In this document: one piece after another, positions 54-32,748 of the stretch
Position numbering within the stretch: position 1 is the first letter of the stretch
Layout: the number at the start of each line of letters is the position of its first letter
Source: Halobacteroidaceae bacterium
GTDB taxonomy: Bacteria; Bacillota; Halanaerobiia; B1SED10-174
NCBI GenBank assembly: GCA_003554145.1
Contig: PWFS01000037.1
Span: forward strand, 1-40,697
DNA length: 40,697 nucleotides
Direction: 5' to 3'
Translations under genes and position numbers: made by a program
Notes under the pieces: model-generated
The model's database searches: none
Told to the model about the DNA's origin: nothing
The model's input: the letters and a program-made list of their open reading frames with translations, nothing else

Positions 54-1073
54 ATTATTATTGAAAATAGTTCCGTAGCCATGGAATCCAGTTATCGTTT
101 TTTTAGTTATCAGGAAAGAAAGGCATCGGTAAGCTTGAGAAATACCTCCGGACCTAACCCGGATCAATTGGACCTTTCCCCTGAAGCTCAATCCAGACTG
201 AGTAACAGCCCTGTTGCGGAGGAAGAAAAACCCCTCTGGGAATTCAGGTTAAGCCAAGAGGATAAACGAAATATCCTCCTCCTGAAAAAGTTCATGGAAA
301 AGCTGACTGGTCGGGAAATTGAAATTAATATAATTACCGGGGTCACTATCAGTGAGGGGAATTTAAAACCTGAAATCAGGGGCACGGGAATGGACCTGGC
401 TCCCACTTTTGAACTGGATTTTACCCTGGAGGAAACAATTTTCGAACAGGAAGCGATGTCCTTTAAAACCAGGGGGACGATTACCACTTCTCAAGGAGAA
501 AAAGTTGAATTCCACCTGGAACTGGATATGAATCGGGAATTTTTCTCCCGTACCGAATTTTTGCTGGAGGAACAGGGCACCCGTCCTCTGGATCCACTGG
601 TCATCAATTTTGATGGCCGGGGCCCCCGGCTTGACAGTAATAAAATTGCCTTTGACCTGAATGCTGATGGAGAAAAAAACATGATTTCTTTCCTGGAACC
701 GGGTAGTGGTTTCCTGGTCTGGGACCGTAAGGGAAAGGAACAGGTTCAGGATGGTCGGGACCTTTTTGGCCCCGCCACAGGCAATGGCTTTGCAGAGCTG
801 GCGGCCCATGATCATGATCAAAACGGCTGGATCGACCGGGGAGACCCAATTTTTTCCGAGCTGCGCATCTGGACCCGGGGAACAGAAGGGAACAAAAAAT
901 TAATCTGTCTGGATCGAGCTGGAGTCGGCGCCATTTACCTGGGAAACATTTCTACTCCCTATAGTCTGAATGATCGGGATAATAATACCCATGGACTGCT
1001 GCAAAAAACAGGCCTTTTCCTGGGCACAGATCATACCCCGGGAACCATTCATCACCTTGATTTAATGATTTAG
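54..1073 (+). CDS. RTX/hemolysin-like EF-hand domain protein without RTX repeats (VCBS/hemolysin-associated type)
   Basis: ORF track 81..1073; motifs FDLNADGEKN, GSGFLVWDRKGKEQVQDGRDLFGPATGNGFAELAAHDHDQNGWIDRGDPIFSELRIW. SD AAAGGAGG (38-45) suggests initiation at ATT 54 rather than ATG 81. Confidence 0.7.
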   Translation: MIIENSSVAMESSYRFFSYQERKASVSLRNTSGPNPDQLDLSPEAQSRLSNSPVAEEEKPLWEFRLSQEDKRNILLLKKFMEKLTGREIEINIITGVTISEGNLKPEIRGTGMDLAPTFELDFTLEETIFEQEAMSFKTRGTITTSQGEKVEFHLELDMNREFFSRTEFLLEEQGTRPLDPLVINFDGRGPRLDSNKIAFDLNADGEKNMISFLEPGSGFLVWDRKGKEQVQDGRDLFGPATGNGFAELAAHDHDQNGWIDRGDPIFSELRIWTRGTEGNKKLICLDRAGVGAIYLGNISTPYSLNDRDNNTHGLLQKTGLFLGTDHTPGTIHHLDLMI

Positions 1074-1096
1074 TTTTGCCTTTTAGCAATTTTTTG

Positions 1097-1124
1097 GGCT
1101 ACCTTCCTGGTAGCCTTTTTTTTT
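1097..1124 (+). terminator. intrinsic terminator after ORF1
   Basis: GGCTACC-TTCCT-GGTAGCC followed by TTTTTTTTT. Confidence 0.85.
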
Positions 1125-1199
1125 GAAAAAAGAAAACCGGGGCATCAGCCCCGATCACTTTTCCCCAGAGATTTTCAGCCATTACTTCTGAAGCCCGAA

Positions 1200-1901
1200 T
1201 TAACCCTGAATATCAGATCCCAACTGCTTTTCATAATTATCCAGGAGATCCTGATCGACAGCCAGATAATAACCTCCCCGGCGCCCCATTCGCACGCCTA
1301 CTAATCCACTTTCAATCAGGGGGCGAATTATCCCCCGGATATAGGAGGGGGTAATATTCAACTCATCGCCCAGGACACTGGAATCTACTGGAGAGGCGTA
1401 AGAAGATTCCTTTTTCCGAAGGCAATTTATAATTTCATAATGGAGGGTCTGCCATTTTCTTTGCAGGAATTCCTGGACTTTTTGGGCATCATGGCCCACG
1501 GTTTTGTCCAGGATTTTATCCCGGGTCTGATTAATACGGTATTCGTTTATTCCCTCCTGAATTATTTCAATTAACCTTTTTATGGCCACCGGCTTGGTTA
1601 GAAACTTAAAGACCCGCCCTTCATTTACTGCTTTCATGGCATTGTCAACGTCAGCAAAGCCAGTAATCATAATTCGAATACTATCAGGTAATATCTGGCT
1701 GGCTTCTGCCAGAAACTCAATACCATCTCTGCCGGGCATTCGATAATCAGATAAAATTACGGCAATATCCTTATGGGCTTTTATTATTTCCAGCCCCTCT
1801 TCAGTGCTGCTCCCGGTTAAAACATCGAATTCATCCATTAAATGGCGTTTAAAAGCTTCCAGTACCCTGGGCTCATCATCAATAATCAGAATTTTTTCCA
1901 A
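1200..1901 (-). CDS. response regulator: REC receiver domain with C-terminal winged-helix domain
   Basis: KILIIDDEP, ILSDYRMPGRDGIEFL, IMITGFAD, KFLTKP receiver motifs; C-terminal YIRGIIRPLIESGLVGVRMGRRGGYYLA wHTH; TTG start after GGGGAGG. Confidence 0.9.
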   Translation of the reverse strand: MEKILIIDDEPRVLEAFKRHLMDEFDVLTGSSTEEGLEIIKAHKDIAVILSDYRMPGRDGIEFLAEASQILPDSIRIMITGFADVDNAMKAVNEGRVFKFLTKPVAIKRLIEIIQEGINEYRINQTRDKILDKTVGHDAQKVQEFLQRKWQTLHYEIINCLRKKESSYASPVDSSVLGDELNITPSYIRGIIRPLIESGLVGVRMGRRGGYYLAVDQDLLDNYEKQLGSDIQG

Positions 1902-1925
1902 GGTAAAACCTCCCCTTTTTTCCTT

Positions 1926-3983
1926 TCAATTTTTTTCTGTTCCCGATATTTTTAAAGGCAGATTTATGGTAAAAGTAGTTCCCTGACCAGGTTCAGAAGC
2001 AACCATTAATTCTCCCTTGTGCTTATTTACAATTATATCGTGGGCAATAGTAAGTCCCTGGCCGGTTCCTTTCCCCACCTCTTTGGTAGTGAAAAAGGGA
2101 TCAAAGATTTTTTCTTTGTTTTCCGAAGAAATCCCTGCCCCATTATCATTGATAATGATTTGAATGATTTCACCCCTGGAAAGGGTACTGATTTTGATCA
2201 GTCCTTTCTCAATTATTCCCTTTTCCCGGGCTTCAGCTATAGCCTGAGCAGAATTAACCACCATATTCAAAATAACCTGATTGATCTCCTCCATCCTACA
2301 AAAAATCTGGGGTAGTCCATTATCCAGATCCAGTTTAACTTCAGTTGCATACTTCCACTCATTTTTTGCTATTTCCAGAGTGCTTTTAATCCCCTCGTTA
2401 ATATTTCCCATCTTCATTTCCGCATCCCCGGGATGAGCAAAGTTTTTCATGGATAATACCAGGCGGTTAACCCTCTTTACCCCCTCAATAGCATCCTCCA
2501 GGGCGTGGGGAACTTCCTTCTTCAATTTATCTATCCTGGGGGGAGGATTTTTTATTTCTCCGTTAATATTCGAAAAAGCCTTCTGTAAAAAGCTCAAATT
2601 ATCCCCGATATATTGCATCGGCGTATTAATTTCATGAGCAATACCTGCAGCCAGCTGACCGATAGATTCCATTTTTTGGGATAATATGGCCCGGTCTTCC
2701 CTGCTTTTAAGCTCAGTAATATCTCCAAAAATCAATATATAACCCAGTGTATCTCCCTGTTCATTTTTTATCGGAGAAAAACTTTCGCTGATTACCCTGA
2801 CCTTACCCTCCCTGGTCTGCAAAATTGTATTGCTTTTCCGGGAAACCCTGTAAATCTTTTTTAAGGGTTCCCCAATAATATTTTCTCCATTCCAACCGGT
2901 TATTTCCATTGCAGCCCGGTTTATCATCCGGATCCTCTCTTCTTTATCCGTGGTTATTACTCCCTCCCTGATACTGCGCAGGGTAATATCCAGCAGCTCT
3001 TTCTCCGCAACCAGTTTTCTTTCCGTTTCTTGGCGGGCTTCAGTTTCCTGTAAAAAATACTTATTTAAATCTCGTAGTTCCCGATTGCGGTCCTCCAGAT
3101 CCTTCTGAAGTTCAATCTCCCGGCTAATATCTCGAGCCTGCAGTAAAACTTCCCCTTTTCCTGTTGCTGCCCTATTTAGATATTTCAAAGTCCACTGCCA
3201 GCAGGTTTTTTTGCGGTTAATTCCCCTCCTGATATGGCAAAATCCCCTTTTCTCTTTAATCTTCACTATCTCCTCAAGGGCAATTTTTAGTTCTTCTTTC
3301 CAACCCGGGGGCAGGAGGGTCATTATTTTTTCCCCTTCCCCATTACCTTCAAATTGTAAAATTTCCCGGGCCCGCTCATTGAAGTCAATAATTTCCCCCT
3401 GTGTATCCAAATGAAGGCTTAGTGTGTCCGCTTCCTGGAGGGCCTCTTCCCGCCGCCGCTTCTGACTCTGTTCCATAATTGTTATAAATAACGCCCCTCC
3501 ACCAGGACAGGTTTTTCGGGAACAGATAGAATAAAATGCGGGCTGTCCCTCAACTTCTATCCAACTGCCTGCATGGTCATCCAGGAAATTGGATCTGGAA
3601 TTCAATTGTGGCTGGAAAAATTCCCGGAATCTCCTCCCTCCTGCCAGTATCTGTCCCTGTTCGTTTAAAAAACCGAGCTCAATTCCCCGGGGATTGCCCC
3701 AGGACCCAATAATGGTTAACGTTGGAGCAATAATCCAGGGGGCTGCTACCCACAAAAGAAACAATAGCAGGCCTGTGGCCCCATTAACAATTAGCATTTC
3801 ACTGCCAGCAAGAAAAAAAAGAACAGCAAAAAGAGTTCCAGCAATAACCCTGATCTGCAGAGAGAAAAAAGCCATTCCCCCGGCAGCTAAAATCCCCAGA
3901 GCAATCAGCCAGACCATATTATTCCCCGGTATAATAAGAAAAAAGGGAAGCCCCAAAAAACAAATTCCATTAAATTTCAACAC
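1926..3983 (-). CDS. membrane PAS-domain sensor histidine kinase
   Basis: N-terminal hydrophobic helices, PAS regions, H-box QLAAGIAHEINTPMQYI, N/G boxes NMVVNSAQAI, DNGAGI, GKGTGQGLTIAHDII. Confidence 0.92.
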   Translation of the reverse strand: MLKFNGICFLGLPFFLIIPGNNMVWLIALGILAAGGMAFFSLQIRVIAGTLFAVLFFLAGSEMLIVNGATGLLLFLLWVAAPWIIAPTLTIIGSWGNPRGIELGFLNEQGQILAGGRRFREFFQPQLNSRSNFLDDHAGSWIEVEGQPAFYSICSRKTCPGGGALFITIMEQSQKRRREEALQEADTLSLHLDTQGEIIDFNERAREILQFEGNGEGEKIMTLLPPGWKEELKIALEEIVKIKEKRGFCHIRRGINRKKTCWQWTLKYLNRAATGKGEVLLQARDISREIELQKDLEDRNRELRDLNKYFLQETEARQETERKLVAEKELLDITLRSIREGVITTDKEERIRMINRAAMEITGWNGENIIGEPLKKIYRVSRKSNTILQTREGKVRVISESFSPIKNEQGDTLGYILIFGDITELKSREDRAILSQKMESIGQLAAGIAHEINTPMQYIGDNLSFLQKAFSNINGEIKNPPPRIDKLKKEVPHALEDAIEGVKRVNRLVLSMKNFAHPGDAEMKMGNINEGIKSTLEIAKNEWKYATEVKLDLDNGLPQIFCRMEEINQVILNMVVNSAQAIAEAREKGIIEKGLIKISTLSRGEIIQIIINDNGAGISSENKEKIFDPFFTTKEVGKGTGQGLTIAHDIIVNKHKGELMVASEPGQGTTFTINLPLKISGTEKN

Positions 3984-4043
3984 CTCCCCCTATAATTAAC
4001 GGAATAACTGCCGTTTTTTTTAATTTTTTCTCTCCAGTGGGAC

Positions 4044-4093
4044 CAAAAAAATACTGCAGCACCAGGATTTACTCCGGGGTTTACAGCAGTATT
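4044..4093 (-). terminator. second terminator-like hairpin upstream of the histidine kinase
   Basis: minus strand AATACTGC...GCAGTATT followed by TTTTT. Confidence 0.5.
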
Positions 4094-4110
4094 TACCGGG
4101 AAAAGGGAAT

Positions 4111-4168
4111 TAAAAAAGCAGAACGAGGAAGACTCCTTTTTCAGTAACAGCAGCAACCTTCCTCGTCC
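4111..4168 (-). terminator. terminator-like hairpin after pilin gene
   Basis: minus strand ACGAGGAAG...CTTCCTCGT then TCTGCTTTTTTA. Confidence 0.65.
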
Positions 4169-4183
4169 TTAAAGCTTGATTAT

Positions 4184-4681
4184 TCAGTTATTTTCAAAAG
4201 AAATTTTGTGAAGATAAATTGTGGCTTCAGATCTTTGCTTTTGACCTTCACCCTCATAACCAGAATAGATACTGGCCGAGATATGCGATTCGCTTCCATC
4301 CTGATCAAAGTCCAGCTGGTATCTTTCCAGGAAAATACTGGCCTGTAGATCTTCACCCAGGAATACTCCCAGATCCTGCTCACAGTTCAGGCTTCCTTTC
4401 CCATTTTCTATTTCATAATAATTCCAGGCCTGTCTTACTGCCTGTAATTCGGCCAGAGTGGCCGCCTCAATCCCCCTTTCCCGGAAACCATCAAACCGGG
4501 GAATAGTTACCATAGCCAGTAGACCCAGTATCGAAATGACAACCAGCAGTTCCACCAGAGTAAATCCTTTTTCCCTATCTATTTTGTTCACCCCCTTCCC
4601 GGAACCTTTATCATTTATTTCTATATTTTCCATTTTTTTCCTGCAAGGAATGTAATGTTTCCTTTGAGAAGTTTTGCTCAA
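4184..4681 (-). CDS. type IV pilin/pseudopilin-like protein with prepilin N-methylation motif
   Basis: EKGFTLVELLVVISILGLLAMVTIPRF class III prepilin signal; true start uncertain (ATG at ORF start or internal GTG/ATA). Confidence 0.85.
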   Translation of the reverse strand: MSKTSQRKHYIPCRKKMENIEINDKGSGKGVNKIDREKGFTLVELLVVISILGLLAMVTIPRFDGFRERGIEAATLAELQAVRQAWNYYEIENGKGSLNCEQDLGVFLGEDLQASIFLERYQLDFDQDGSESHISASIYSGYEGEGQKQRSEATIYLHKISFENN

Positions 4682-4716
4682 TGATATATAATTAGATGAA
4701 GAGGGAGGTGTTTTTT

Positions 4717-6129
4717 ATTAATCTAGTAACTGCAGGAAAAAACAAGTTTAAAATTTCTCGGCAGGGAAAAATGCAAACCGAATGTCACCTCTACCTTACT
4801 CCCGCCCTGGCTGAAAAGCTGGAACAGGATTGTATCCAACAACTTGTGGCAGCTGCTTCTCTGCCCGGATTGGTTGGTCCTGTCCTGGCCATGCCCGATG
4901 TTCACACCGGTTTTGGTCTTCCGATCGGGGGTATTATGGCCATGGATGGAACTGAAGGCCTTGTTTCTGCCGGGGCAGTGGGCATGGATATCAACTGTGG
5001 AGTTCGGCTGCTACAGACCAGCATTGATTATAAAGAACTCACTGATAAGCAGCTTAAACAGATTATGAAAAATATTCTGGACCGAGTTCCTGTGGGGCTG
5101 GGCAAGGCCCGCCCCTACAAGGGTGCTATGGCTTCAATTAATAAGAAGATCTTTCGGAAAGGGGCCCGGGCCCTGGTCGAAGCTGGTTATGGAAGGTGGG
5201 ATGACCTGGATAACACTGAAGAAAAAGGTGCTTTCTCCCTGGCCGATCCCAGGGCTCTAAGCAAAAAAGCCCTTTCCCGGAGCGATCAGTTGGGCACTCT
5301 GGGATCGGGCAACCATTTTATAGAACTGGGTTATGTGGAGCAGGTATTCAATTCTCAGGCTGCAGGAAAAATGAATCTGCAGCAGGGCAAACTAACCATC
5401 CTCATCCATACCGGAAGTCGAGGCTTCGGCCATCAGATTTGCACCGATTTTTCTTCCAGCATGGTTCAGGACGCAGCCAGGTATAAAATTGATCTTCCCA
5501 ATAAAGGTCTGGCTGCAGTTCCTATTGAATCGCCTGAAGGTCAAAAATACCTGCAGGCAATGGGCTGCGCGGTCAACTTTGCTTTTGCCAATCGTCAGTT
5601 AATTGCCCACCTGGTACGGGAAGCTGTCGGGGAGGCATTGCATGAAGTTCCTCACAGGCTGGGCTTAAATCAGGTTTATGACGTTGCTCACAATATTGCC
5701 AAGTTCGAAGAACATAAAAAGAAAAGGGTCTTGATCCACCGCAAGGGAGCTACTCGCGCCCTACCTCCTGATGACCCCCTGAATCCCCCTGCCTATAAAA
5801 AAACCGGCCAGCCCGCAATTATTCCCGGAAGCATGGGCACCGGCTCCTATGTAACTATTGCCCGAAAAAAAGCAGCGGAAACTTACTTTTCGGTAAATCA
5901 CGGGGCCGGCCGGGTTCTTTCCCGCTCCCAGGCCAAAAAACAGATTTCCAAAAATGATTTTGACCGGCAGATGGGTGATGTGCAGTACAACATCAGGGAT
6001 TATCGGAAAATTGTGGACGAAGCCCCTGGCGCCTATAAAGATATTGACGATGTGATTAACACCCTGGCTGATATTGATATTACCGAAAAAGTATGCCGTC
6101 TGAAACCACTGGCGACAATAAAAGGCTAA
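4717..6129 (+). CDS. rtcB: RNA-splicing ligase RtcB
   Basis: ORF track 4696..6129; AMPDVHTGFGLPIGGIMA, GAVGMDINCGVRL, LGSGNHFIELGYV, HTGSRGFGHQIC, YDVAHNIAKFEEH, PGSMGTGSYV, VNHGAGRVLSRSQAKK. Probable ATT start at 4717. Confidence 0.95.
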   Translation: MNLVTAGKNKFKISRQGKMQTECHLYLTPALAEKLEQDCIQQLVAAASLPGLVGPVLAMPDVHTGFGLPIGGIMAMDGTEGLVSAGAVGMDINCGVRLLQTSIDYKELTDKQLKQIMKNILDRVPVGLGKARPYKGAMASINKKIFRKGARALVEAGYGRWDDLDNTEEKGAFSLADPRALSKKALSRSDQLGTLGSGNHFIELGYVEQVFNSQAAGKMNLQQGKLTILIHTGSRGFGHQICTDFSSSMVQDAARYKIDLPNKGLAAVPIESPEGQKYLQAMGCAVNFAFANRQLIAHLVREAVGEALHEVPHRLGLNQVYDVAHNIAKFEEHKKKRVLIHRKGATRALPPDDPLNPPAYKKTGQPAIIPGSMGTGSYVTIARKKAAETYFSVNHGAGRVLSRSQAKKQISKNDFDRQMGDVQYNIRDYRKIVDEAPGAYKDIDDVINTLADIDITEKVCRLKPLATIKG

Positions 6130-6153
6130 AAAAGTCCCCCCGGGGACTTTTTT
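6128..6153. terminator. bidirectional terminator between rtcB and the convergent ATPase gene
   Basis: AAAAAAGTCCCC-CC-GGGGACTTTTTT. Confidence 0.85.
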
Positions 6154-6496
6154 ATTTCTTCATAAAAACGGTAATCTCTGTCCCCTCTCCCGGAGAAGTT
6201 TTAACCCGAGCAGCATCTGTCATCATCCCCACCAGGGAAAGACCGGTACCCTGAAAACTCTGCCCCGCCAGAGAGCCATAATAATCTTCCAGTTCTTCTC
6301 GACGAGGCCTCTCCAATTTTTTCTTTACTTCCTCTAATTTTTGTTGATCCATTCCTTCTCCATTATCTTTAACTTTGATCACTACTTCATCTCCAGAAAA
6401 ATCAACATCTACCTCAATCCTCGTAGCCCCTGCTTTTAAGGCATTATTGTAAAGTTCATCCACAATTCCCCTGGTGTTTCGTCGATGTGAATGCAT
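6152..6496 (-). CDS. standalone HATPase_c-type ATP-binding protein
   Basis: IVDELYNNALKAGAT, VKDNGEGMD, GTGLSLVGMMTDAA, SPGEGTEITVFMKK (N, G1, G2 boxes). Confidence 0.75.
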   Translation of the reverse strand: MHSHRRNTRGIVDELYNNALKAGATRIEVDVDFSGDEVVIKVKDNGEGMDQQKLEEVKKKLERPRREELEDYYGSLAGQSFQGTGLSLVGMMTDAARVKTSPGEGTEITVFMKK

Positions 6497-7741: not shown

Positions 7742-7795
7742 TAAAACAAAACCCCTTTTCCCTTTTTTCCTCTAATCTTTAAATAAATTAAACCT

Positions 7796-9122: not shown

Positions 9123-9157
9123 CCCGCCCTCCACCTCCCCTCGGCTTTAATTCCATT

Positions 9158-9571
9158 TTACAATAACAGGTTCAGGATCAGACCGCTTATCAGAGAAAGC
9201 CCGATGCGCAGTGCCAGCAAAGCTTTAACCGGAACCCCTGACTGCCGGATAACCATCGTTTCCATGGGTAAACTGTGGGAAATAGTCAGCATTCCCCCCA
9301 GAATAGTTATTTCTCTGATGGTCAATTCTAAGCCTGAAATGGCTCCCACTGCAGCATAAATATTTATGGCCTGGCCCAGAATTAAGACCATAACAGCTTC
9401 TCCCGGCAAACCCAGGTAGGCCATAGCTGGCTTAAAAACTCCACTCAACCAGTCCAGTACAGGAGTATAACGAAGTATTGTAATCATAATATATACCGGG
9501 ACCATTATCCGCATTAAAATTAAGAAGGTCCTGATCCCATTATTCCATCCTCGAAGCAGGGTTTTTTTAAT
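9158..9571 (-). CDS. nucleoside recognition (Gate) domain membrane protein, half 2
   Basis: ORF track 9158..9514; frame stays open to an ATT at 9571 after SD GGGGGAG, adding (M)KKTLLRGWNNGIRTFLIL. Confidence 0.7.
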   Translation of the reverse strand: MKKTLLRGWNNGIRTFLILMRIMVPVYIMITILRYTPVLDWLSGVFKPAMAYLGLPGEAVMVLILGQAINIYAAVGAISGLELTIREITILGGMLTISHSLPMETMVIRQSGVPVKALLALRIGLSLISGLILNLLL

Positions 9572-10172
9572 TGTCCTCTCCCCCTCTGGCCTTTAATTTC
9601 AGGCCATCAAGGTCCCTGATAATTATTTTTTTTCGTTTTTTTTCAATAAGCCCTTGATCCGCAAAAACTCCCAGCACCCGGGTTACTGTAACCCGGGAAA
9701 CACCCAGCAGGTCTGCCAGTTCCTGATGAGAAAAGCACATTCCCTTTTCCCCCAGTTCCTCCTTTAGCTGAACCAGCAATCCCGCCAATCGGGAGGGGAA
9801 AAAGTTAAAGGTTAGGTCCCTGATTTCTCCCAGCAAAAAATCAATTTGCTTAAACAGGCTGAAAAGGAGAGCGCTCTCTTTTTCATTGTTTCCAAGAAGG
9901 TTTTCAATTTCTCCGTCCTGAAAAAATAATACCCGGGAATCCTCTTTAGCCTGGAGATAAATCCTGCAGTCTTCTTCCTCCTGGCTTAAACCGCTGACAT
10001 ATTGCCCCTCTTTTCCCAGGAAGAGAATACGTTCTTTACCCGCAGGGTTCAAGATATAAAACTTCACCAGTCCTTTGGCAATATAAGCCAGTGCAGGAGG
10101 TTCTTCATTGAGGAAAAGTACTTCATCTTTACTTAATTTGCTACCCCGGGAAAATTTATTCAATTTCTGCAC
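9567..10172 (-). CDS. Crp/Fnr family transcriptional regulator
   Basis: cyclic-nucleotide-binding-like N-terminus, HTH FSHQELADLLGVSRVTVTRVLGVF; probable TTG start at codon 4. Confidence 0.88.
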   Translation of the reverse strand: MQKLNKFSRGSKLSKDEVLFLNEEPPALAYIAKGLVKFYILNPAGKERILFLGKEGQYVSGLSQEEEDCRIYLQAKEDSRVLFFQDGEIENLLGNNEKESALLFSLFKQIDFLLGEIRDLTFNFFPSRLAGLLVQLKEELGEKGMCFSHQELADLLGVSRVTVTRVLGVFADQGLIEKKRKKIIIRDLDGLKLKARGGEDN

Positions 10173-10385
10173 CTCCCAGTATTTCCTTTAAGTTTTTCTG
10201 GAATTAATTTTTTTAATTTAGGGCAAAAATAAAAGCCAGGAAATTATTCCCGGCCGGGGATATCCTCACCCAGATTTTTTCCCGCACCAATCTCAACTGT
10301 GGGGCTAATTACCCAGGAACAAAAATAACTCCTTTTTTGGAGAGAACAGGAAAATCCTTCTTCAGTTCCCCATCATCCCGAAAAT

Positions 10386-11653: not shown

Positions 11654-11675
11654 CCGGATCTACCTCCATTGAAAT

Positions 11676-18753: not shown

Positions 18754-19980
18754 TTATTTTACCCGGGCAAATTTTCGCTTGCCCACCCGCAGAATCATTC
18801 CACTGCGGGGAGTTATTTCTTGATTGGGGTCCTTTATTCTTTCCTCATCAACATAAACCCCACCCTGATTAATCAAACGCCGCCCCTCGCTTTTACTGGA
18901 TACCATGTTGAGGGCAGAAATTAAATGAACCAGGCGAACATTTCCCTGATGATCTTTTAATTCCTGGGGAACTTCTTCTTCCGGGATATCTTCAGGTAGA
19001 TGCCCTCCGGAAAAGACCCGGGAAAATTCTTCCTCGGCTTTTTGCGCCTTTTCCTGACCATGATACATTTCTACCAGGCGTCGGGCCAGAAATTTCTTGG
19101 CCTGCAGGGGGCTAAATTCTCCCTTTTTTATTCTTTCCCGATATTTTTCCAGTTCTTCTCCCCGCATATCAGTAGTCAGGGTTATATAGCTTTCCAGGAG
19201 ATCATCAGAGATCGACATGGTTTTTCCGTATATTTCTCTGGGGTCCTCGTTAATCCCAATATAATTATTTAGGGATTTGCTCATCTTTTGAACCCCATCG
19301 GTTCCCTCCAATAGGGGGGTCATAATAAGGGCCTGGGGGTTTTGACCATATTCTTTCTGCAGTTGCCTTCCTACCAGCAGGTTAAATTTTTGATCGGTTC
19401 CCCCCAGCTCCACATCGGCCTTAATAGCAATTGAATCGTAGCCCTGCAATAAGGGGTAAAAGAATTCCAGAATGGAGATAGGCTTACCCTCCTGATATCT
19501 TCTGGCAAAATCATCTCGCTCCAGCATACGGGCCACTGTGTACTTGGAGGCCAGGTTTAAAAATTCTTCGGGAGCCCAGGGGGAAAACCATTCACTGTTA
19601 AAAACCAGGTGGGTTTTTTCTGGATCTAAGATCTTGCTGAATTGGTCCTGATAGGTCTGGGCATTTTTCATAACCTCTTCTTCAGTCAGCTGTTTTCTTA
19701 TTTCTGATTTTTGAGAAGGGTCTCCAATTCTTCCGGTAAAATCCCCTATGATCAGGTACGCTTCATGCCCAAGGTCCTGAAATTCCCTCATTTTTCGAAG
19801 AGGAACAGTATGCCCGAGATGAATGTCCGGGGCAGTGGGATCCAGGCCCAGTTTTACCCTGAGGGGAGGGCCACCCTGATCCCTTTTTTTTAATTTTGCA
19901 ATTAGATCCTCTTCACCAATAATTTCGCTTAAACCCTGTTTTAATATTTTTAAACTATCCTGCCAGGCCAGGGTGACCAC
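18754..19980 (-). CDS. tyrS: tyrosyl-tRNA synthetase
   Basis: KLGLDPTAPDIHLGHTVPLRKM, GDFTGRIGDPS, GGTDQKFNLLVGR, KMSKSLNNYI, S4-like C-terminus. Confidence 0.96.
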   Translation of the reverse strand: MVTLAWQDSLKILKQGLSEIIGEEDLIAKLKKRDQGGPPLRVKLGLDPTAPDIHLGHTVPLRKMREFQDLGHEAYLIIGDFTGRIGDPSQKSEIRKQLTEEEVMKNAQTYQDQFSKILDPEKTHLVFNSEWFSPWAPEEFLNLASKYTVARMLERDDFARRYQEGKPISILEFFYPLLQGYDSIAIKADVELGGTDQKFNLLVGRQLQKEYGQNPQALIMTPLLEGTDGVQKMSKSLNNYIGINEDPREIYGKTMSISDDLLESYITLTTDMRGEELEKYRERIKKGEFSPLQAKKFLARRLVEMYHGQEKAQKAEEEFSRVFSGGHLPEDIPEEEVPQELKDHQGNVRLVHLISALNMVSSKSEGRRLINQGGVYVDEERIKDPNQEITPRSGMILRVGKRKFARVK

Positions 19981-19985
19981 CTCCT

Positions 19986-22886: not shown

Positions 22887-22890
22887 GAAA

Positions 22891-22919
22891 AACCTGCAGC
22901 CGCAAGCTGCAGGTTTTTT
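22891..22919 (+). terminator. terminator after the PBP gene
   Basis: CCTGCAGC-CGCAA-GCTGCAGG-TTTTTT. Confidence 0.88.
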
Positions 22920-25275: not shown

Positions 25276-25841
25276 TAATCACCACCTGTTTGAGCCATTA
25301 AGACCCTTTTTAAGACCTTCTTAATAAAATTCCCTTCAGTTTCAATATTTTTTCTGTCTGGAAACATTGAATTCTCATTGAATGAGAAATATATAGACTT
25401 CTTTTATATAAAAGCCCCTTTTTTAGCCTTCTAAAAAACATTTCACAGCTTGTTCCTGCTCAATTCTAAAAATAGTTTTATTCTTTTCCCATTGCCCTGT
25501 CCCAGCCCCCATTAAAGATAAAGGGAAGGGGCTGCCTTCCCATTTTTTGCAGGTGATCTTGTTTTGTCAGGCCTGCTTGAGAAATTCTTTCAATAGACTC
25601 CTCTACCAGAGCATCTTTTTCTTGCTCCCCAAACCTATTTCCCCCTTAATATAACCTTAAAGCAGAGTGGCTGTCAAATCCCATAGATCTGGAAAAAAAG
25701 CTCGACAAATTGACTGTAATCAGCTTTTTCCAGAAAGATAAGGGAGTTCCTTTTATGCAAAAAAAGGGATAAAACTCAAATTTTCGGGCAAAAAAATAAT
25801 ACCAGAGGAAAATCAAAATATTGCACAGGGCGCCCGATTTT

Positions 25842-26375
25842 TCATTCTCCCAGATTGCCCTCCAGGAACCCATCATTGGCCTGAAAAAAACGGTCCAGAT
25901 TTTCCTGCACTAAAGGGGTCAATTCCAGGAAATCACTGGCCAGGCGAGATGCTTCCAGGTGATCCAGCAAAACTTCGTATGGGACCCGGGCCAGCAAAAG
26001 CAGCAAGAGATAAACCACAACTCCTCCCTTTACGAGACCAAGCCCCGCACCACCAATACTGTCCACGACCGCCAGGAAAAGGAAACGGGTTAGTTTCTGC
26101 AAAAGAAAACCCAGGAGATTAACCAGAGCACTGATCACCATGGTTATCAGAACAAAAGCCACAATATTGGCCAGCACTGGAGGAAGGAGAAAAGTCTCCT
26201 GCAAAAACTCACTGACCAGGTGATAACGGTGCAGGGCAACCAGGACCCCCAATCCTATACCCAGAAGTGCAGCAGTCTGTTGCAATAACCCCCGCTGATA
26301 ACCCCGGACAAGGGAAAGGAGCAATATGGCCACGATACCAATATCCACCCAAAAACCTTCGGCCAAGAATATCAC
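25842..26375 (-). CDS. cvpA: CvpA family membrane protein
   Basis: 4 TM, VDIGIVAILLLSLVRGYQRGLLQQ; overlaps zapA stop. Confidence 0.85.
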   Translation of the reverse strand: MIFLAEGFWVDIGIVAILLLSLVRGYQRGLLQQTAALLGIGLGVLVALHRYHLVSEFLQETFLLPPVLANIVAFVLITMVISALVNLLGFLLQKLTRFLFLAVVDSIGGAGLGLVKGGVVVYLLLLLLARVPYEVLLDHLEASRLASDFLELTPLVQENLDRFFQANDGFLEGNLGE

Positions 26376-26638
26376 TCCTCCCGGGCAAAAAAGTCCAGCA
26401 ATTCTTCGTTTTCTTTTTTAAGCCTGACATATTCATTGCCCAATTCCATGAGGGCAAGTAAATAGAGCCGATTTCTCCCCAGGTTGGGAAACCTCTTTTT
26501 TACATCCCAGAGCTGAGAATCCACCAGGCGGGCAGCCTCTTTAATCTGTTCCGGACCGTCCCCTTTAAAAGAATAGGTTTGCCCCAGAAGGTTCACCCTG
26601 ACCTGATCCTGATAATTTTCATTTTTTTTCTGGACCAT
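26372..26638 (-). CDS. zapA: cell division protein ZapA
   Basis: VRVNLLGQTYSFKGDGPEQIKEAARLVD...LYLLALMELGNEYVRLKKEN, order pheT-zapA-cvpA-mutS2. Confidence 0.88.
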   Translation of the reverse strand: MVQKKNENYQDQVRVNLLGQTYSFKGDGPEQIKEAARLVDSQLWDVKKRFPNLGRNRLYLLALMELGNEYVRLKKENEELLDFFAREE

Positions 26639-26716
26639 AATTTTATCACCTTCTTATGTGCCCGTTTCTAAATCTATCTTTCTCATAATACCCTCTAAAT
26701 TCCTTCTTTTTTGTAA

Positions 26717-26748
26717 AATACCCTCCCCTTTTTATCAGGGAGGGTATT
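26717..26748 (-). terminator. pheT terminator-like hairpin
   Basis: minus strand ATACCCTCCC-TGATAAAAAGG-GGAGGGTATTTTAC. Confidence 0.6.
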
Positions 26749-26750
26749 CA

Positions 26751-29129
26751 TCATTGCCTGATTTCAGCTTCCAGCTCTTCCCCGGTTCGAGTAATTATCT
26801 GGTCCATTATGTCCTCAATTTCCTTATCGGTAAGGGTTCTTTCTGGATTGCGGAAAACGAGTCTGAAGGCCAGGCTCTTACAATCACCGGGTATCTGTTT
26901 CCCCCTGTAAATATCGAAGAGAATCAGATCTTCCAGAAATGGCCCACCATTTTCTTCAATAAGGGTAAAAACCCCACCTGCAGAAACTTCTTCTTTAACG
27001 ATTAAAGCTATATCTCTACTGATTGCAGGATAACGGGGAACTCCCCTGTAATTGGGAGCCAGGCTGGCTTCCCGGAAAAGGGGCATTAAATCGATTTCCA
27101 GGACCCCCACCCTACTCGGAAAGCGAAACTTTTCTTCCAGGCGAGGATGCAGCTCTCCAATGCATCCGACTTTTTCACCGTTAATGACGACCTCTGCCTG
27201 CCTTCCGGGGTGCAAAAACTCATGAGAAGAGTTATTTAAAGAGAGTTCCAACCCCAGTTCATCGGTTATTATTTCCAGGATCCCCTTTAAATCAAAAAAC
27301 TCCGGAGCTTCAACCAGCCAGGGAACTCCATCAGAAACTGCTCCCATTACAACAGCAGCAAGAGCCGATTTTTGATTTATCCCCCTCCCGGGAAAAACAT
27401 CTCCAACTTCATAAAGAGCTGCCTCCCTTTCCTGGCGTCTGGCATTAAAAGCAAGGGACCTGAGAAGTCCGGGTAGAATTTCCTGGCGCAAAAAAGAATT
27501 ATCACTGCTCAACGGGTTGGTTATTTTCAAGGGGGTTGAACAGTTTTGTTGGAGATTTTCCCCGGGGCTGATAAGCGGCATATTGAATGTTTGATGATAT
27601 CCTGCCAGGTGCATTACGTTCCTGATTTTTTCTTCGATATCCTGACCGGGCTTTTTCTGGCCCAACTCCATATCTACCCGGGGTAGAGTTGCAGGGATTT
27701 CTTCGTAACCGAAAACCCTGGCTACTTCTTCAATCAGATCCGCTTCGATCTTTACATCATTCCTAAAGGAAGGGACCTGAACCCGAAAGGCTCCTTCTTT
27801 CCGCCGGGAATCCTTCACTTTAAAGTGCAGTTTTTCCAGGATGCTCTTTATCTCCATACGAGATATATCTGTTCCAAGAACCTCATTAATCCGCTGCGGC
27901 CGAACCTTGATTAAAAGAGGCTCTTTTAACTGGGGGTAAATATCAACTATTCCCCCAATTACTTCTCCTCCTGCAATTTCACCCATTAACTGGGCCGCTC
28001 GCCGGGAGGCCCTGGTTATATTCTCGATATCAATTCCCCGTTCAAATCGATGAGAAGATGGACTGTGCAGGAGAAATTCTTTGGCAGTCTTTCTGATGCT
28101 GGCCGGATTAAAGCAGGCCGCTTCCAGGAGAATGTTATAAGTTTTCAAGGTTACCTCACTCTCCAGGCCTCCCATCACACCGCCCAGAGCCAGGGGTTTT
28201 TCTGTATCGGCAATCACCAGATTATGCTCCTTTAGCTCCCTTTCCCGGCCATCAAGAGTAAGCAGTTTTTCCCCTTCCTTTGCATTGCGAACTATTATTT
28301 TCTTATCCTTAATACAGTCATAATCAAAGGCATGCAGGGGTTGTCCCATTTCCAGCATAACATAGTTGGTGATATCCGCAATATTATTAACCGGTCGCAA
28401 TCCTGCTGCCAGAAGACGTACTTTTAACCACCAGGGGGACTCCTCCACCTTAACTCCTTCCACGATTCGTGCAGTATAACGAGAACAGCTTTCCAGTTCC
28501 TCAACTTCTACAGAAATCAGATCTTCCGCCCGCCCCGATTCCTGCTCTCCAGTTATGGGGGGATAGTTTATTTCCTGTTCAAATACTGCTGCCAGTTCCC
28601 GGGCCACCCCCAGTAAATTCAAGGCATAACCATAATTGGGGGTCAGATCCAGAACAAAAATATGATCATCCAGGTTGAAATATGGAGCAAATTTTTCCCC
28701 GGGTACTGCATCCTTATCCAGGACCAAAACTCCTTCTGCTTGCTCTTCCTGCAGATTCAATTCATCTGCGGAGCAAATCATCCCCTGGGATATTTCCCCT
28801 CGGATTTCAGCCTTTTTTACTTCCTGTCCTCCAGGCAGGGTGGTTCCAGCTGGAGCCAGAACTACCTTCTGCCCTTTCTGGACATTGGCTGCCCCGCAGA
28901 CAACCTGCAGGTCCTTTCTGCCCAATCCAACATTAACCAGGGTCAGATTATCAGCCCGGGGATGCTTTTTTATCTCCTGAATCTGCCCAATTAAAAGGTC
29001 CTTGTATTTCTTCTTCCAGTCTTCAATATAGTCTACTTCCAGTCCCAGAGTTGTCAGTTTTTCCGCAACTTCTTCGGGAGAAAGGTCTAGATCAATATAT
29101 TCTTTTAGCCAGTTATAGGAAACCCGCAT
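26751..29129 (-). CDS. pheT: phenylalanyl-tRNA synthetase beta subunit
   Basis: MRVSYNWLKEYIDL, tRNA-bd domain, B3/B4, FDX-ACB C-terminus. Confidence 0.97.
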   Translation of the reverse strand: MRVSYNWLKEYIDLDLSPEEVAEKLTTLGLEVDYIEDWKKKYKDLLIGQIQEIKKHPRADNLTLVNVGLGRKDLQVVCGAANVQKGQKVVLAPAGTTLPGGQEVKKAEIRGEISQGMICSADELNLQEEQAEGVLVLDKDAVPGEKFAPYFNLDDHIFVLDLTPNYGYALNLLGVARELAAVFEQEINYPPITGEQESGRAEDLISVEVEELESCSRYTARIVEGVKVEESPWWLKVRLLAAGLRPVNNIADITNYVMLEMGQPLHAFDYDCIKDKKIIVRNAKEGEKLLTLDGRERELKEHNLVIADTEKPLALGGVMGGLESEVTLKTYNILLEAACFNPASIRKTAKEFLLHSPSSHRFERGIDIENITRASRRAAQLMGEIAGGEVIGGIVDIYPQLKEPLLIKVRPQRINEVLGTDISRMEIKSILEKLHFKVKDSRRKEGAFRVQVPSFRNDVKIEADLIEEVARVFGYEEIPATLPRVDMELGQKKPGQDIEEKIRNVMHLAGYHQTFNMPLISPGENLQQNCSTPLKITNPLSSDNSFLRQEILPGLLRSLAFNARRQEREAALYEVGDVFPGRGINQKSALAAVVMGAVSDGVPWLVEAPEFFDLKGILEIITDELGLELSLNNSSHEFLHPGRQAEVVINGEKVGCIGELHPRLEEKFRFPSRVGVLEIDLMPLFREASLAPNYRGVPRYPAISRDIALIVKEEVSAGGVFTLIEENGGPFLEDLILFDIYRGKQIPGDCKSLAFRLVFRNPERTLTDKEIEDIMDQIITRTGEELEAEIRQ

Positions 29130-29140
29130 AAAAATCCTCC

Positions 29141-30160
29141 TTAAAACTGTTTTAGAAAACGAAGATCATTATCCCAGAGGTGCCGGATATCTTCGATTTC
29201 ATATTTATACATGGCCATCCGATCCAGGCCCATTCCAAAAGCAAAACCAGTAAATCTTTCCGCATCAATCCCTGACATTTCCAGAACCCGGGGGTTAACC
29301 ATTCCCGCTCCCAGTATTTCCAGCCATCCTGTTCGGGAACAGAGGGAACAGCCCTGACCCTGACACTTAAAGCAGGAAACATCTACTTCAGCACTGGGCT
29401 CGGTAAATGGAAAATAGGAGGGGCGAAACCTAACTTCCCGTCCTGCCCCAAAGATTTCCCTGGTCACCGCAATCAGAACCCCCTTGAGATGACTGAAAGT
29501 TATGCCCCGATCAATTACCAGCCCTTCCAGTTGATGGAAGACAGGGGAATGGGTAGCATCCAATTCATCAACCCGATAACACTTGCCCGAGGTTATCATC
29601 CGAATAGGAGGAGTCTGTTTTTCCATGGTCCGGACCTGAACCGGGGAAGTGTGGGTCCTGAGCAAAAGCCCACCTTCAACATAGAAAGTGTCCTGCATAT
29701 CCCTGGCTGGGTGATTTTCTGGAATATTTAAAGCTTCAAAATTGTAATAGTCTGTTTCCACATCGGGTCCTTCCTCAATGGAAAAGCCCATCCGCAAAAA
29801 CATGTCCTCCAGTTGCTCTATTATCAACTGCATGGGATGTATTCTTCCCCCCTGGAGGGGTTTTCCCGGCAGGGTAATATCTATTGCTTCCTCCTGCAAT
29901 CGTTGCTTTTCCTGGTCAGCCTTAAGAATCTGGAGGCGAGCTTCCAGTTCTTTTTCAATTATTTCCTTGACCTGATTGGCCTTCTTGCCAACTTTTGGTC
30001 TTTCTTCAGGGTCCAATCTGCCCATCCCTCGCAGCACACCTGTCACTTTGCCGTTCTTCCCCAGAAATTCAACCTGAAGCTGTTCCAGTTCAGCCAGATC
30101 ACGGGCTGAAGCAATTTTCTCCAGGGCTTCTTCCTGTAAGGCCTCAAGCTTCCTTTCCAT
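29141..30160 (-). CDS. pheS: phenylalanyl-tRNA synthetase alpha subunit
   Basis: HPMQLIIEQLEDMFLRMGFSIEEGPDVETDYYNFEALNIPENHPARDMQDTFY, GMGLDRMAMYKYEIEDIRHLWDNDLRFL. Confidence 0.97.
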   Translation of the reverse strand: MERKLEALQEEALEKIASARDLAELEQLQVEFLGKNGKVTGVLRGMGRLDPEERPKVGKKANQVKEIIEKELEARLQILKADQEKQRLQEEAIDITLPGKPLQGGRIHPMQLIIEQLEDMFLRMGFSIEEGPDVETDYYNFEALNIPENHPARDMQDTFYVEGGLLLRTHTSPVQVRTMEKQTPPIRMITSGKCYRVDELDATHSPVFHQLEGLVIDRGITFSHLKGVLIAVTREIFGAGREVRFRPSYFPFTEPSAEVDVSCFKCQGQGCSLCSRTGWLEILGAGMVNPRVLEMSGIDAERFTGFAFGMGLDRMAMYKYEIEDIRHLWDNDLRFLKQF

Positions 30161-30179
30161 TAAAATCCCTCCCCTGAAC

Positions 30180-30555
30180 TAAAAATTCCCCTCGCCAGCA
30201 AGGGACGAGGGGCCGCGGTACCACCCTATTTAACCACAAAGGTTCACTTAAGCCCTGTAACGGAGGGCAACCGGACAGCCTACTTGGTTTCAACTGTCAC
30301 CTCCGGAGCGAAATTTCACCGGGATGTTTTCAGAAGGCTCTCAGCCCCGGGCCCTCCTTCTCTAGAGAAAACATAACCCCGAATACCAACTCCATCTTCG
30401 GTCCATTATCAGATTATTTACATGGCATTAGAACGTTCGGAAAAGGTCAGCAGCCTCCGGTATACAATATAAGCATTGACCGAACCAGTCCGCTCAAATA
30501 ATCTCCATAAAAAGAGCGGGCAAATCTTCACAAGACCACTCCCTTTCCCCATTTA
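30180..30555 (-). promoter_or_regulatory. T-box leader of pheST
   Basis: minus strand T-box AGGGTGGTACCGCGGCCCCTCGTCCCTTGCTGGCGAGGGGAATTTTT. Confidence 0.93.
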
Positions 30556-30562
30556 TTTTAAA

Positions 30563-30591
30563 ATTATAACACAGTTTCAGGGGGTTGGCAA
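30563..30591 (-). promoter_or_regulatory. sigmaA-type promoter of the pheST T-box leader
   Basis: minus strand TTGCCA - 17 nt - TATAAT. Confidence 0.75.
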
Positions 30592-30720
30592 GAAAGGAAA
30601 ACGGGAGCCTCTGATCAGAATATGTTGATGATCATCCTCTCTTCCAACCTTAAGGGAATAAATACCAGGAACAAACCTGATAGAGATTAAGTTTCTCCTC
30701 ATCAGTTACAGAAATGGGAT

Positions 30721-31482
30721 TTAACTCTGCATGGCCCAGATAAGAATGGCACCAGCAGCTGCAACATTAAGAGACTCTATATCTCGGGCCAGAGGAATAG
30801 AAACTTTTTTTACGCTTCTCCCAGAAAAATCACCGCTAATCCCCCGGGTCTCATGCCCCAGAACCAGGGCACTTTTTCGGGCAAATTTAACCTGTCGAAA
30901 ATCCCTGCCCTGCCCTGGTTGAGCAACATATAGAGAAAAATCCCGGGGGAGTTCGGAAAAAAAGGAATCTCTTTCTTCTTGTTTAACTTTTCCAACCGGG
31001 ATCCAGAAAATTGCACCTGCAGAAGCCCTTAGGACTTTGGGTTGATAGGGATCGGCCCCTTCACCGAGAAGAATAATTCCATCCAGATCAGCTCCAGCAG
31101 CGGTTCTAATTAAAGTCCCCACATTGCCGGGGTCCTGCAAACCTTCCAGTAGGAGAAGCTTCTCTCCTCCCAGGAGTTCCTGCCAGGGATAGTAGGGTTG
31201 CTTAATTCGGGCAATAATTCCCCGGGGAGTTCGAGTTGGAGAAATCTTGTCCATGACTTCTTCTGATACCAGGGTAATTTTTTCCTTAAAATAAAACCCT
31301 TCGGTGGCTAAAAAGTCTTCGGTAGCCAGGATTTCAATAAAATCAATACCGGCCCGATTGGCTTCTTTAATAAGGTTGGGGCCTTCAAGAATAGTCTCCT
31401 GAGTTTTCTTCCTTTCTTTTCGGCTCTGTAAACTCGCCAGGTATTTAACCCGCGGGTTTTGCCGGCTGGTTATTTTCCCCAT
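30721..31482 (-). CDS. TrmH/SpoU family RNA methyltransferase
   Basis: ITSRQNPRVKYLASL, LLLEGLQDPGNVGTLIRTAAGADLDGIIL, VLGHETRGIS, IPLARDIESLNVAAAGAILIW. Confidence 0.93.
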   Translation of the reverse strand: MGKITSRQNPRVKYLASLQSRKERKKTQETILEGPNLIKEANRAGIDFIEILATEDFLATEGFYFKEKITLVSEEVMDKISPTRTPRGIIARIKQPYYPWQELLGGEKLLLLEGLQDPGNVGTLIRTAAGADLDGIILLGEGADPYQPKVLRASAGAIFWIPVGKVKQEERDSFFSELPRDFSLYVAQPGQGRDFRQVKFARKSALVLGHETRGISGDFSGRSVKKVSIPLARDIESLNVAAAGAILIWAMQS

Positions 31483-31610
31483 TTGAATTTTTGGTCCATC
31501 CTCTCCTGATCATTGTTTTGACAGAAAATCACCGAACCATTTCGGTGACAGGGAAGTATTCTATCCTTAATATGCATTCATCTGCTTCTGACCAGAACCT
31601 CCCCCTAGTA

Positions 31611-31638
31611 AAACCCCCTTCTCAAAAAAGAAGGGGGA
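31611..31638 (-). terminator. rplT terminator
   Basis: minus strand CCCCCTTC-TTTTTT-GAGAAGGGGG-TTTT. Confidence 0.8.
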
Positions 31639-31646
31639 ACTATTTT

Positions 31647-32000
31647 CTATTGTCCATTTTTTGCAATGGAAATCAACTGGCGAAAGCCTTCCTGATCGTT
31701 AACCGCCATATCGGCCAGGACTTTGCGGTTTATCTGCACATCAGCCTTTTTTAATCCGCTGATAAATTTATTATAACTCATACCGTTTTGCCGGGCCGCA
31801 GCATTTATACGGCTGATCCAGAGTCGACGGAAATCTCTTTTCTTTCGTTTCCGATCCCGGTAGGCATAACTCATGGACTTGATAACCTGTTCCTGGGCCG
31901 GGCGATATAATTTGCTTTTGGAACCAAAATACCCTTTGGCCAGCTTTAAAACCTTTTTGCGGCGGCGACGGGCTTTGGGCCCTCTTTTTACACGCGGCAT
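31647..32000 (-). CDS. rplT: ribosomal protein L20
   Basis: [39 protein letters not shown]. Confidence 0.98.
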
Positions 32001-32019
32001 AAAAAACCCTCCTTAAATC

Positions 32020-32217
32020 CTAATTATACGGAAGTAGTTTATCTATAACTTTCTGATCAGCAGCGGAAACTTCTTTGGGTTGCCGCAACTGTCGTTTTCT
32101 TTTTCCACTTTTGGAAGTCAGCTTATGTCTGCCAAAAGCTTTTTCATGCATTACCTTCCCTGAACCTGTCTTTTTTACCCTCTTAGCAGTTGCCTTGTGG
32201 GTCTTCATCTTTCCCAA
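32020..32217 (-). CDS. rpmI: ribosomal protein L35
   Basis: MGKMKTHKATAKRVKKTGSGKVMHEKAFGRHKLTSKSGKRKRQLR; TTG start. Confidence 0.97.
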   Translation of the reverse strand: MGKMKTHKATAKRVKKTGSGKVMHEKAFGRHKLTSKSGKRKRQLRQPKEVSAADQKVIDKLLPYN

Positions 32218-32229
32218 TTTAATTACCCC

Positions 32230-32748
32230 CTACTTTTTTTCACTAATAGGGCCGAATATAGCTATCATATTCCGGCCTTCCATCTTGGGCTTATTTTCCA
32301 GTTTTCCCAGATCTTTTATCCCTTCTTCAAAATGCCGTAATATTTCATGCCCCTGATCTTTATGGGTTATTTCCCGGCCTCGGAACTTTATGCGCAATTT
32401 AACCTTATCATTATTTCCCAGAAACTTCCTGGCCATGCGCAGCTTGGTATTAAAATCATGCTCCTCAATTTTTAAGCCTACCTGAACTTCTTTAACATTA
32501 ACTATATTTTGATTTTTCTTGGCTTCTTTTGCTTTTTTTGCCTGTTCATATTTATATTTCCCATAGTCCATGACCCTGCATACTGGCGGCTTTGCTTGAG
32601 GAGCCACTTCTACCAGGTCCAACTCTTTTTCTCCGGCCAAATTCAAACCATCACGTAAAGACATAATCCCAATCTGTTCGCCTTCAGCATCAATAACTCT
32701 AACCTGGCGGGCCTTAATAGATTCATTAACCCTTAGATCCTTGCTAAT
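32230..32748 (-). CDS. infC: translation initiation factor IF-3, AUU start
   Basis: track ORF begins at internal ATG 32664; frame extends 28 codons upstream to ATT 32748 (ISKDLRVNESIKARQVRVIDAEGEQIGI) with SD GGGGGTG and 7-nt spacer. Confidence 0.96.
   Translation of the reverse strand: MSKDLRVNESIKARQVRVIDAEGEQIGIMSLRDGLNLAGEKELDLVEVAPQAKPPVCRVMDYGKYKYEQAKKAKEAKKNQNIVNVKEVQVGLKIEEHDFNTKLRMARKFLGNNDKVKLRIKFRGREITHKDQGHEILRHFEEGIKDLGKLENKPKMEGRNMIAIFGPISEKK

What the first reader, a model, noticed from the sequence alone, without database searches (positions are those of the whole stretch)
54..32748. Recurrent AUU start codons after strong Shine-Dalgarno sequences in four unrelated genes
Seen: (1) ORF1: AAAGGAGG (38-45), 8 nt, ATT 54, in frame with ATG 81. 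(2) rtcB: GGGAGG (4703-4708), 8 nt, ATT 4717; the track ATG 4696 lies upstream of the SD. (3) Gate protein: GGGGGAG, 6 nt, ATT 9571, in frame with no ATG/GTG/TTG before 9514. (4) infC: GGGGGTG, 7 nt, ATT 32748. Established: AUU is normal only for infC (and E. coli pcnB) because IF3 rejects it. Inference: this organism may tolerate or regulate AUU starts more widely, possibly placing several genes under IF3-level control.
Basis: partly seen in the sequence, partly recalled or inferred. Interest (0 to 1): 0.8.

Follow-up and report, generated by a model that had tools for sequence, protein, structure and literature searches.

The report
Genome-wide AUU, AUC, AUA, CUG starts
This uncultured bacterium and its close relatives appear to start about 4% of their proteins, including core ones such as NusG and tyrosyl-tRNA synthetase, at codons (AUU, AUC, AUA, CUG) that bacteria almost never use, behind very strong ribosome-binding sites, and standard gene finders would miss these starts.

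Summary
All four ATT sites are in the sequence as described. Three are well supported: infC (the known case), rtcB, and a Gate protein whose ATT is kept in four of five congeneric genomes. ORF1 is unresolved: no homologue, frame open to the contig edge. The idea behind the finding holds and is broader than stated. In a 25% sample of the genome (522 kb, 361 scorable genes), a start model with no codon preference ranks ATG, GTG, TTG, then ATT; ATC and ATA are also in the top seven. A strict scan finds 14 hits with a strong Shine-Dalgarno at 6-10 nt and ATT/ATC/ATA/CTG but no usable ATG/GTG/TTG (3.5 per codon, against 0.49 for the other 57 codons). At 43 orthologous positions in five related genomes, 40 carry a start-type codon and 30 a near-cognate one. 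nusG keeps CTG in all five congeners; tyrS is CTG here, TTG in three relatives. Other Bacillota show essentially only infC. IF3 residues and the initiator-tRNA anticodon arm look ordinary, so I favour extended SD pairing compensating for weak start codons. IF3-level regulation is untested. Everything is comparative sequence evidence; no expression data exist.

The parts
38..45 (+). Shine-Dalgarno AAAGGAGG of ORF1
   Evidence: sequence
54..1073 (+). ORF1 read from ATT 54 (unresolved: ATG 81, ATT 48/57/60 or a start beyond the contig edge remain possible)
   Evidence: no Pfam family; no homologue in G001-G005
4703..4708 (+). Shine-Dalgarno GGGAGG(TG) of rtcB, 8 nt before ATT 4717
   Evidence: SD score 13.5
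4717..6129 (+). rtcB (RNA ligase RtcB) with ATT start; ATC at the same codon in G001, G002, G003, G004 and in G005 of another genus
   Evidence: Pfam PF01139 E=3e-152; start alignment
9578..9584 (-). Shine-Dalgarno GGGGGAG of the Gate gene
9158..9571 (-). Gate (nucleoside recognition) protein with ATT start, overlapping the upstream gene's stop; ATT without adjacent ATG also in G001, G003, G004, ATG-ATT in G002
32756..32762 (-). Shine-Dalgarno GGGGGTG of infC
32230..32748 (-). infC (IF3) with ATT start, as in most bacteria
   Evidence: NCBIfam TIGR00168 residues 3-167 on model 3-167
19980..19985 (-). Shine-Dalgarno AGGAGG(TG) of tyrS, 8 nt before CTG 19971
18754..19971 (-). tyrS with CTG start (not in the finding); TTG at the same codon in G001, G002, G004
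   Evidence: NCBIfam TIGR00234
4184..4582 (-). prepilin-like protein with probable ATA start (not in the finding); an in-frame GTG inside the SD is a less likely alternative
   Evidence: Pfam N_methyl PF07963, residues 3-26 on profile 3-26

Best explanation
In this genus near-cognate start codons (AUU, AUC, AUA and CUG as well as GUG and UUG) are ordinary, if minor, start codons. The ribosome is placed by an extended Shine-Dalgarno sequence (GGAGGTG type) about 8 nt upstream, and fMet-tRNA with its CAU anticodon accepts a single mismatch at the first or third codon position. Shown here by sequence: the genes, the SD spacing, the in-frame excess of exactly these codons, and the fixed start position in related species with the codon switching among AUG, UUG, AUU, AUC, AUA and CUG. 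Inferred: that strong SD pairing is what compensates, that the product begins with Met, and that output is lower than from AUG. The four reported sites are samples of this (rtcB, Gate), the universal infC case, and one unresolved case (ORF1).
For: Unbiased 64-codon start model: ATG 223, GTG 53, TTG 52, ATT 7.3, ATC 3.3, ATA 3.0 of 361 genes. Strict scan: near-cognates 3.5 hits per codon, other codons 0.49. In-frame versus out-of-frame p = 9e-6. At in-frame GGAGGTG-type sites lacking a canonical start, the codon at spacing 8 is near-cognate in 14 of 26, at the seven other offsets 18 of 182 (p = 7e-7); the same offset carries the canonical codon at the other sites. Orthologues: 40 of 43 aligned positions are start-type codons and 30 of 43 near-cognate; nearly all other offsets are far lower. 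Examples: nusG CTG in 5/5 congeners, and in this genome a TGA follows the GTG of the SD so no canonical start remains; tyrS CTG here, TTG x3; CBS/DRTGG regulator CTG here, TTG x4, ATG in G005; accB ATT/ATC 4/4; TetR ATT/ATC 3/3; FAD oxidoreductase ATT 3/3; rtcB ATT/ATC 6/6; plsC ATC here and in G001, ATG in G005. Curated family models align residue-for-residue from the near-cognate codon (IF3, BCCP, NDK, permease).
Against: No proteomic or ribosome-profiling data. At spacing 8 the GTG inside GGAGGTG is in frame (26 of 43 orthologue positions), so for rtcB, accB and others a start inside the SD is not excluded gene by gene, only statistically. CTG is favoured less clearly than the AUN codons by the start model (1.9 genes). 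The excess is not significant in the congener G002 alone. The sample is a quarter of a draft metagenome-assembled genome.
Confidence: 0.83

Rival explanations
1. Relaxed start-codon discrimination: the lineage has altered initiation machinery (IF3, IF1, IF2, 16S rRNA or its methylation, ribosomal protein tails, initiator tRNA), so that near-cognate codons are accepted generally.
For: Genus-wide use, four different near-cognate codons, and core genes such as nusG and tyrS among the users.
Against: IF3 keeps the conserved basic residues (E. coli K110, R112, K123, K125, R131, R133, R168); its differences at 99 and 147 occur elsewhere too. The initiator anticodon arm GGGCTCATAACCC is present unchanged. 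16S rRNA, IF1, IF2 and modification enzymes were not examined.
Confidence: 0.3
2. IF3-sensitive regulon: the genes are deliberately kept on discriminated start codons so that their output follows IF3 level, as infC autoregulates.
For: infC itself has ATT; conservation of near-cognates in accB, nusG, rtcB; in Staphylococcus aureus the AUA start of ccpN responds to growth medium (PMC13009471).
Against: The codon drifts between TTG or ATG and near-cognate among close relatives (tyrS, CBS regulator, plsC), which argues against a strict regulatory requirement in those genes; functions are unrelated.
Confidence: 0.15
3. The true starts are canonical codons nearby: the GTG inside the GGAGGTG motif, or a downstream ATG/GTG/TTG without SD.
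For: In-frame GTG occurs 3 codons upstream at 26 of 43 orthologous positions; the G008 rtcB ATG aligns with that GTG; ORF1 has ATG 81.
Against: That GTG has no SD of its own and in nusG is followed by TGA. Near-cognates are concentrated at the spacing-8 codon only (14/26 vs 18/182). tyrS and CBS relatives have TTG at that codon although the same GTG is present. Gate, TetR, plsC, the ASKHA protein and infC have no such GTG. Downstream starts would cut conserved N-termini.
Confidence: 0.08
4. Chance or assembly error: ATT is common in an A+T-rich genome and MAG errors turned ATG into ATT.
For: Frame-blind counts of SD plus ATT are unremarkable.
Against: In-frame tests and conservation in independently assembled genomes.
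Confidence: 0.03
5. Translational coupling: near-cognate starts are used by ribosomes that have just terminated on the upstream gene.
For: Gate, accB and plsC starts overlap the upstream stop (-5, -5, -14 nt).
Against: Most others have no close same-strand gene upstream in the gene calls used, so coupling cannot be general.
Confidence: 0.05

Closest known systems
infC AUU start (bacterial IF3, autoregulated) and E. coli pcnB AUU
   Same: AUU start after an SD; infC of this genome is one of them, and most infC genes in 100-odd loci have ATT, ATA or ATC
   Different: There isolated genes; here about 4% of sampled genes of many functions and four near-cognate codons
Staphylococcus aureus infC (AUA), cvfC1 (AUU), ccpN (AUA) with extended SD motifs (PMC13009471)
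   Same: Conserved near-cognate codon, extended SD with suitable spacing, conserved between species; about 10-30% of AUG output was measured there
   Different: Genome-wide profiling there found four non-canonical sites; here about 14-16 candidates in a quarter of a genome, CUG included, and core genes nusG, tyrS, accB
Alternative near-cognate start sites found by N-terminomics or Ribo-RET in E. coli and Salmonella (PMC13245402, PMC11005335)
   Same: Initiation at AUU, AUC or CUG detected
   Different: Those are mostly secondary proteoforms of genes with a canonical start; here no usable canonical start is present
Rare bacterial CUG starts (0.024% of bacterial initiation codons, 0.86% of AUG efficiency; PMC11497404)
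   Same: CUG read by initiator tRNA
   Different: CUG is conserved at nusG in five congeneric genomes and in a corrinoid-activation-type ASKHA protein in three

Membership tests
Near-cognate start with extended SD (infC / pcnB / ccpN type) | start position carries a near-cognate codon and no usable canonical start | tested here: met
   Gate and infC: first canonical codon lies 19 and 28 codons downstream; nusG; rtcB only if the GTG inside the SD is discounted; not met for ORF1
Near-cognate start with extended SD (infC / pcnB / ccpN type) | strong or extended SD at favourable spacing | tested here: met
   SD scores 10-13.5, spacing mostly 8; the scan selects for strong SD, so this is partly built in
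Near-cognate start with extended SD (infC / pcnB / ccpN type) | conserved across species | tested here: met
   40/43 start-type, 30/43 near-cognate at aligned positions
Near-cognate start with extended SD (infC / pcnB / ccpN type) | lower output than AUG, and dependence on IF3 | not testable with these tools
   needs reporters or profiling
Altered initiation machinery | IF3 lacks residues needed for start discrimination | tested here: not met
   conserved residues present; the list of relevant residues is from general knowledge
Altered initiation machinery | initiator tRNA without the G-C anticodon stem or CAU anticodon | tested here: not met
   exact GGGCTCATAACCC present, two hits in this genome; whole tRNA not read
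Altered initiation machinery | changed 16S rRNA P-site elements or their methylases | not tested
   16S not found in the sampled stretches
Translational coupling | start overlaps or abuts the upstream stop | tested here: not met
   3 of 17 listed candidates overlap

The most novel reading that the evidence does not exclude
The lineage has globally relaxed start-codon selection, through a change in the ribosome or initiation factors not yet identified, so that the full set AUG, GUG, UUG, AUU, AUC, AUA and CUG works as ordinary start codons behind a strong SD, and dozens of genes per genome, essential ones included, cannot be annotated correctly with ATG/GTG/TTG.
Probability: 0.3. Interest if true: 0.78.

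Novelty: new variant of a known kind. Interest (0 to 1): 0.62.

Why it matters
Textbook bacteria have one or two genes with AUU starts and gene finders allow only ATG/GTG/TTG. A lineage in which roughly one gene in 25 uses AUU, AUC, AUA or CUG would make start-codon discrimination directly testable by comparing its IF3, initiator tRNA and ribosome with standard ones, would show how far SD pairing can replace codon recognition, and would mean that N-termini (signal peptides, first domains) are mis-annotated across such genomes. The fixed position with a drifting codon (CTG/TTG/ATG; ATT/ATC) also gives a natural series for measuring selection on start codons.

Tried and rejected
Frame-blind SD+ATT counts: uninformative. 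False positives removed by hand after homology: RlmH (L009, TTG two codons upstream), FabF (L008, ATG six codons upstream), RnfD and TadA (downstream ATG with SD). Special IF3 or initiator tRNA: no distinctive change. ORF1: no family or homologue. Reciprocal best hits between samples gave too few pairs for a codon-substitution table. Taxonomy look-up of the nearest named MAG failed. Class-wide nusG and ndk starts could not be read because loci were no longer cut out.

Full report
OBSERVATION. The four sites were read directly. ORF1 has AAAGGAGG at 38-45, eight bases, ATT at 54, in frame with ATG 81. rtcB has GGGAGG at 4703-4708, eight bases, ATT at 4717. The Gate gene on the minus strand has GGGGGAG, six bases, ATT at 9571, and no ATG/GTG/TTG in frame before 9514. 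infC on the minus strand has GGGGGTG, seven bases, ATT at 32748, and no canonical codon before 32664. The window is a complete contig (C214) of a draft metagenome-assembled genome of 2.10 Mb in 259 contigs, 94% complete. The nearest named record is a Bacillota MAG, isolate CSSed162cmA_81, with IF3 90% identical; its nusG hit has the same coordinates as that of G002, so it probably is G002. Next nearest by IF3 are mostly Halanaerobium, Orenia and Natroniella.

IS IT CHANCE? Genes were called with a dicodon model and starts assigned by an expectation-maximisation model that begins with all 61 sense codons equal. It converged to ATG 223, GTG 53, TTG 52, then ATT 7.3, with TCA 3.4, ATC 3.3, ATA 3.0, CCA 2.2, CTA 2.0 and CTG 1.9 of 361 genes. 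A stricter scan (strong SD at 6-10 nt, coding potential intact, no canonical start served by an SD nearby) gave ATT 6, ATC 2, ATA 1, CTG 5, that is 3.5 per near-cognate codon, against 28 hits spread over the other 57 codons, 0.49 each; two of these 14 (CTG and ATT, L013) belong to the same gene. In-frame versus out-of-frame counts differ (21/75 against 11/174, p = 9e-6), and still do without the window (17/61 against 9/141, p = 7.5e-5).

WHAT THE GENES ARE. Near-cognate candidates in the sample: rtcB, Gate, infC, a TetR regulator, a class II photolyase, a HepT-like protein, an FAD oxidoreductase and accB with ATT; plsC and an Fe-alcohol dehydrogenase with ATC; a DppB-type permease and a prepilin with ATA; tyrS, nusG, a CBS/DRTGG regulator and an ASKHA/ferredoxin-domain protein with CTG. 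Curated models place the near-cognate codon at the family's first residue within a position or so: infC residues 3-167 on model 3-167, BCCP 3 on 3, permeases 2 on 2 or 3 on 3, and, in the class relative G013, an NDK with ATC whose residue 1 falls on model position 1 to 3. Four first-round candidates proved false on inspection (RlmH, FabF, RnfD, TadA).

RELATIVES. Gate: ATT at the same codon in G001, G003 and G004, and ATG-ATT in G002. rtcB: ATC in G001, G002, G003, G004 and in G005 of another genus, each behind a GGAGGTG-type SD. Other orthologues: nusG CTG in all five congeners; tyrS CTG here but TTG in three; CBS regulator CTG here, TTG in four, ATG in G005; ASKHA CTG 3/3; FAD oxidoreductase ATT 3/3; accB ATT/ATC 4/4; TetR ATT/ATC 3/3; plsC ATC here and in G001 and ATG in G005; permease ATA here and ATT in G004. 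Over 43 aligned orthologue positions, 40 are start-type codons and 30 near-cognate; at neighbouring offsets near-cognates are 0-10 of 43. A start position that stays put while its codon moves among ATG, TTG, CTG, ATT, ATC and ATA is what real starts should show. The set was chosen from candidates found in this genome, so it measures conservation, not frequency.

THE GTG INSIDE THE SD. GGAGGTG at spacing 8 puts a GTG in frame three codons before the proposed start, so a GTG start is a fair rival for rtcB, accB, tyrS and others, and the G008 rtcB ATG aligns with it. Against it: in nusG of this genome that GTG is followed by TGA; it has no SD of its own; and among 26 such sites without a canonical codon nearby, the third codon after GTG is near-cognate 14 times, against 18 of 182 at the seven other offsets (p = 7e-7). 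The third codon is also where canonical starts sit at the remaining sites (46 of 77). Gate, TetR, plsC, ASKHA and infC are free of this ambiguity.

HOW COMMON ELSEWHERE. The same strict scan on loci from other Bacillota (236 genes, infC neighbourhoods) found near-cognates almost only at infC; I count three others, which is the level of noise (my reading of the list; the script's own infC filter was too narrow). In 200 kb of E. coli there is one doubtful hit. In the class relative G013 there are five in 327 genes, including ndk with ATC; in G005 four in 87 genes, of which rtcB and a dimethylargininase-like gene look convincing; in G002 four in 201, of which rtcB and the ASKHA protein are convincing. 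So the trait is clear in this genus, present in the family, and may be weaker in the class. These pools are small and not random gene samples.

MECHANISM. The codons used are those with one mismatch to the CAU anticodon at the first or third position; ACG-type codons are not enriched. IF3 keeps the conserved basic residues, and its changes at E. coli positions 99 and 147 occur in many other bacteria. The initiator anticodon arm is unchanged. I therefore favour compensation by extended SD pairing, as shown experimentally in S. aureus for infC, cvfC1 and ccpN (PMC13009471), over a changed machinery, but 16S rRNA, IF1, IF2 and the methylases were not examined. CUG in nusG and tyrS is the most surprising part, since CUG gave 0.86% of AUG output in E. 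coli (PMC11497404). Coupling to an upstream gene can apply only to Gate, accB and plsC.

VERDICT. About 14-16 near-cognate genes among 361 scored gives roughly 4%, which would mean some 60 genes in the whole genome; this is an extrapolation. The literature search covered only open-licence PubMed Central papers, so an earlier report cannot be excluded.

Noticed in passing
window 18754-19971 (-): tyrS has no canonical start at its SD; CTG 19971 follows AGGAGGTG by 8 nt, and three congeners have TTG at that codon.
   Followed up: yes
window 4184-4582 (-): Prepilin-like gene with ATA at the start position; an in-frame GTG inside the SD is an alternative.
   Followed up: partly
L202:9851-10273 (class relative G013): Nucleoside diphosphate kinase whose start codon is ATC after GGGAGGTG; the next Met is at residue 34.
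   Followed up: partly
L022-L101 and L263-L298: infC start position across about 115 loci: ATT 47, ATA 22, ATC 21; AUA and AUC together nearly as common as AUU.
   Followed up: partly
L003:7141-7235 (-): ARAGORN reports a selenocysteine tRNA (anticodon TCA), so selenoproteins are likely in this genome.
   Followed up: no
G001-G004: About 20 DppB-type permease matches per genome, suggesting a large expansion of peptide/nickel ABC importers in this genus.
   Followed up: no
window 54-1073 (+): ORF1 protein has no Pfam match and no homologue in five close relatives.
   Followed up: partly
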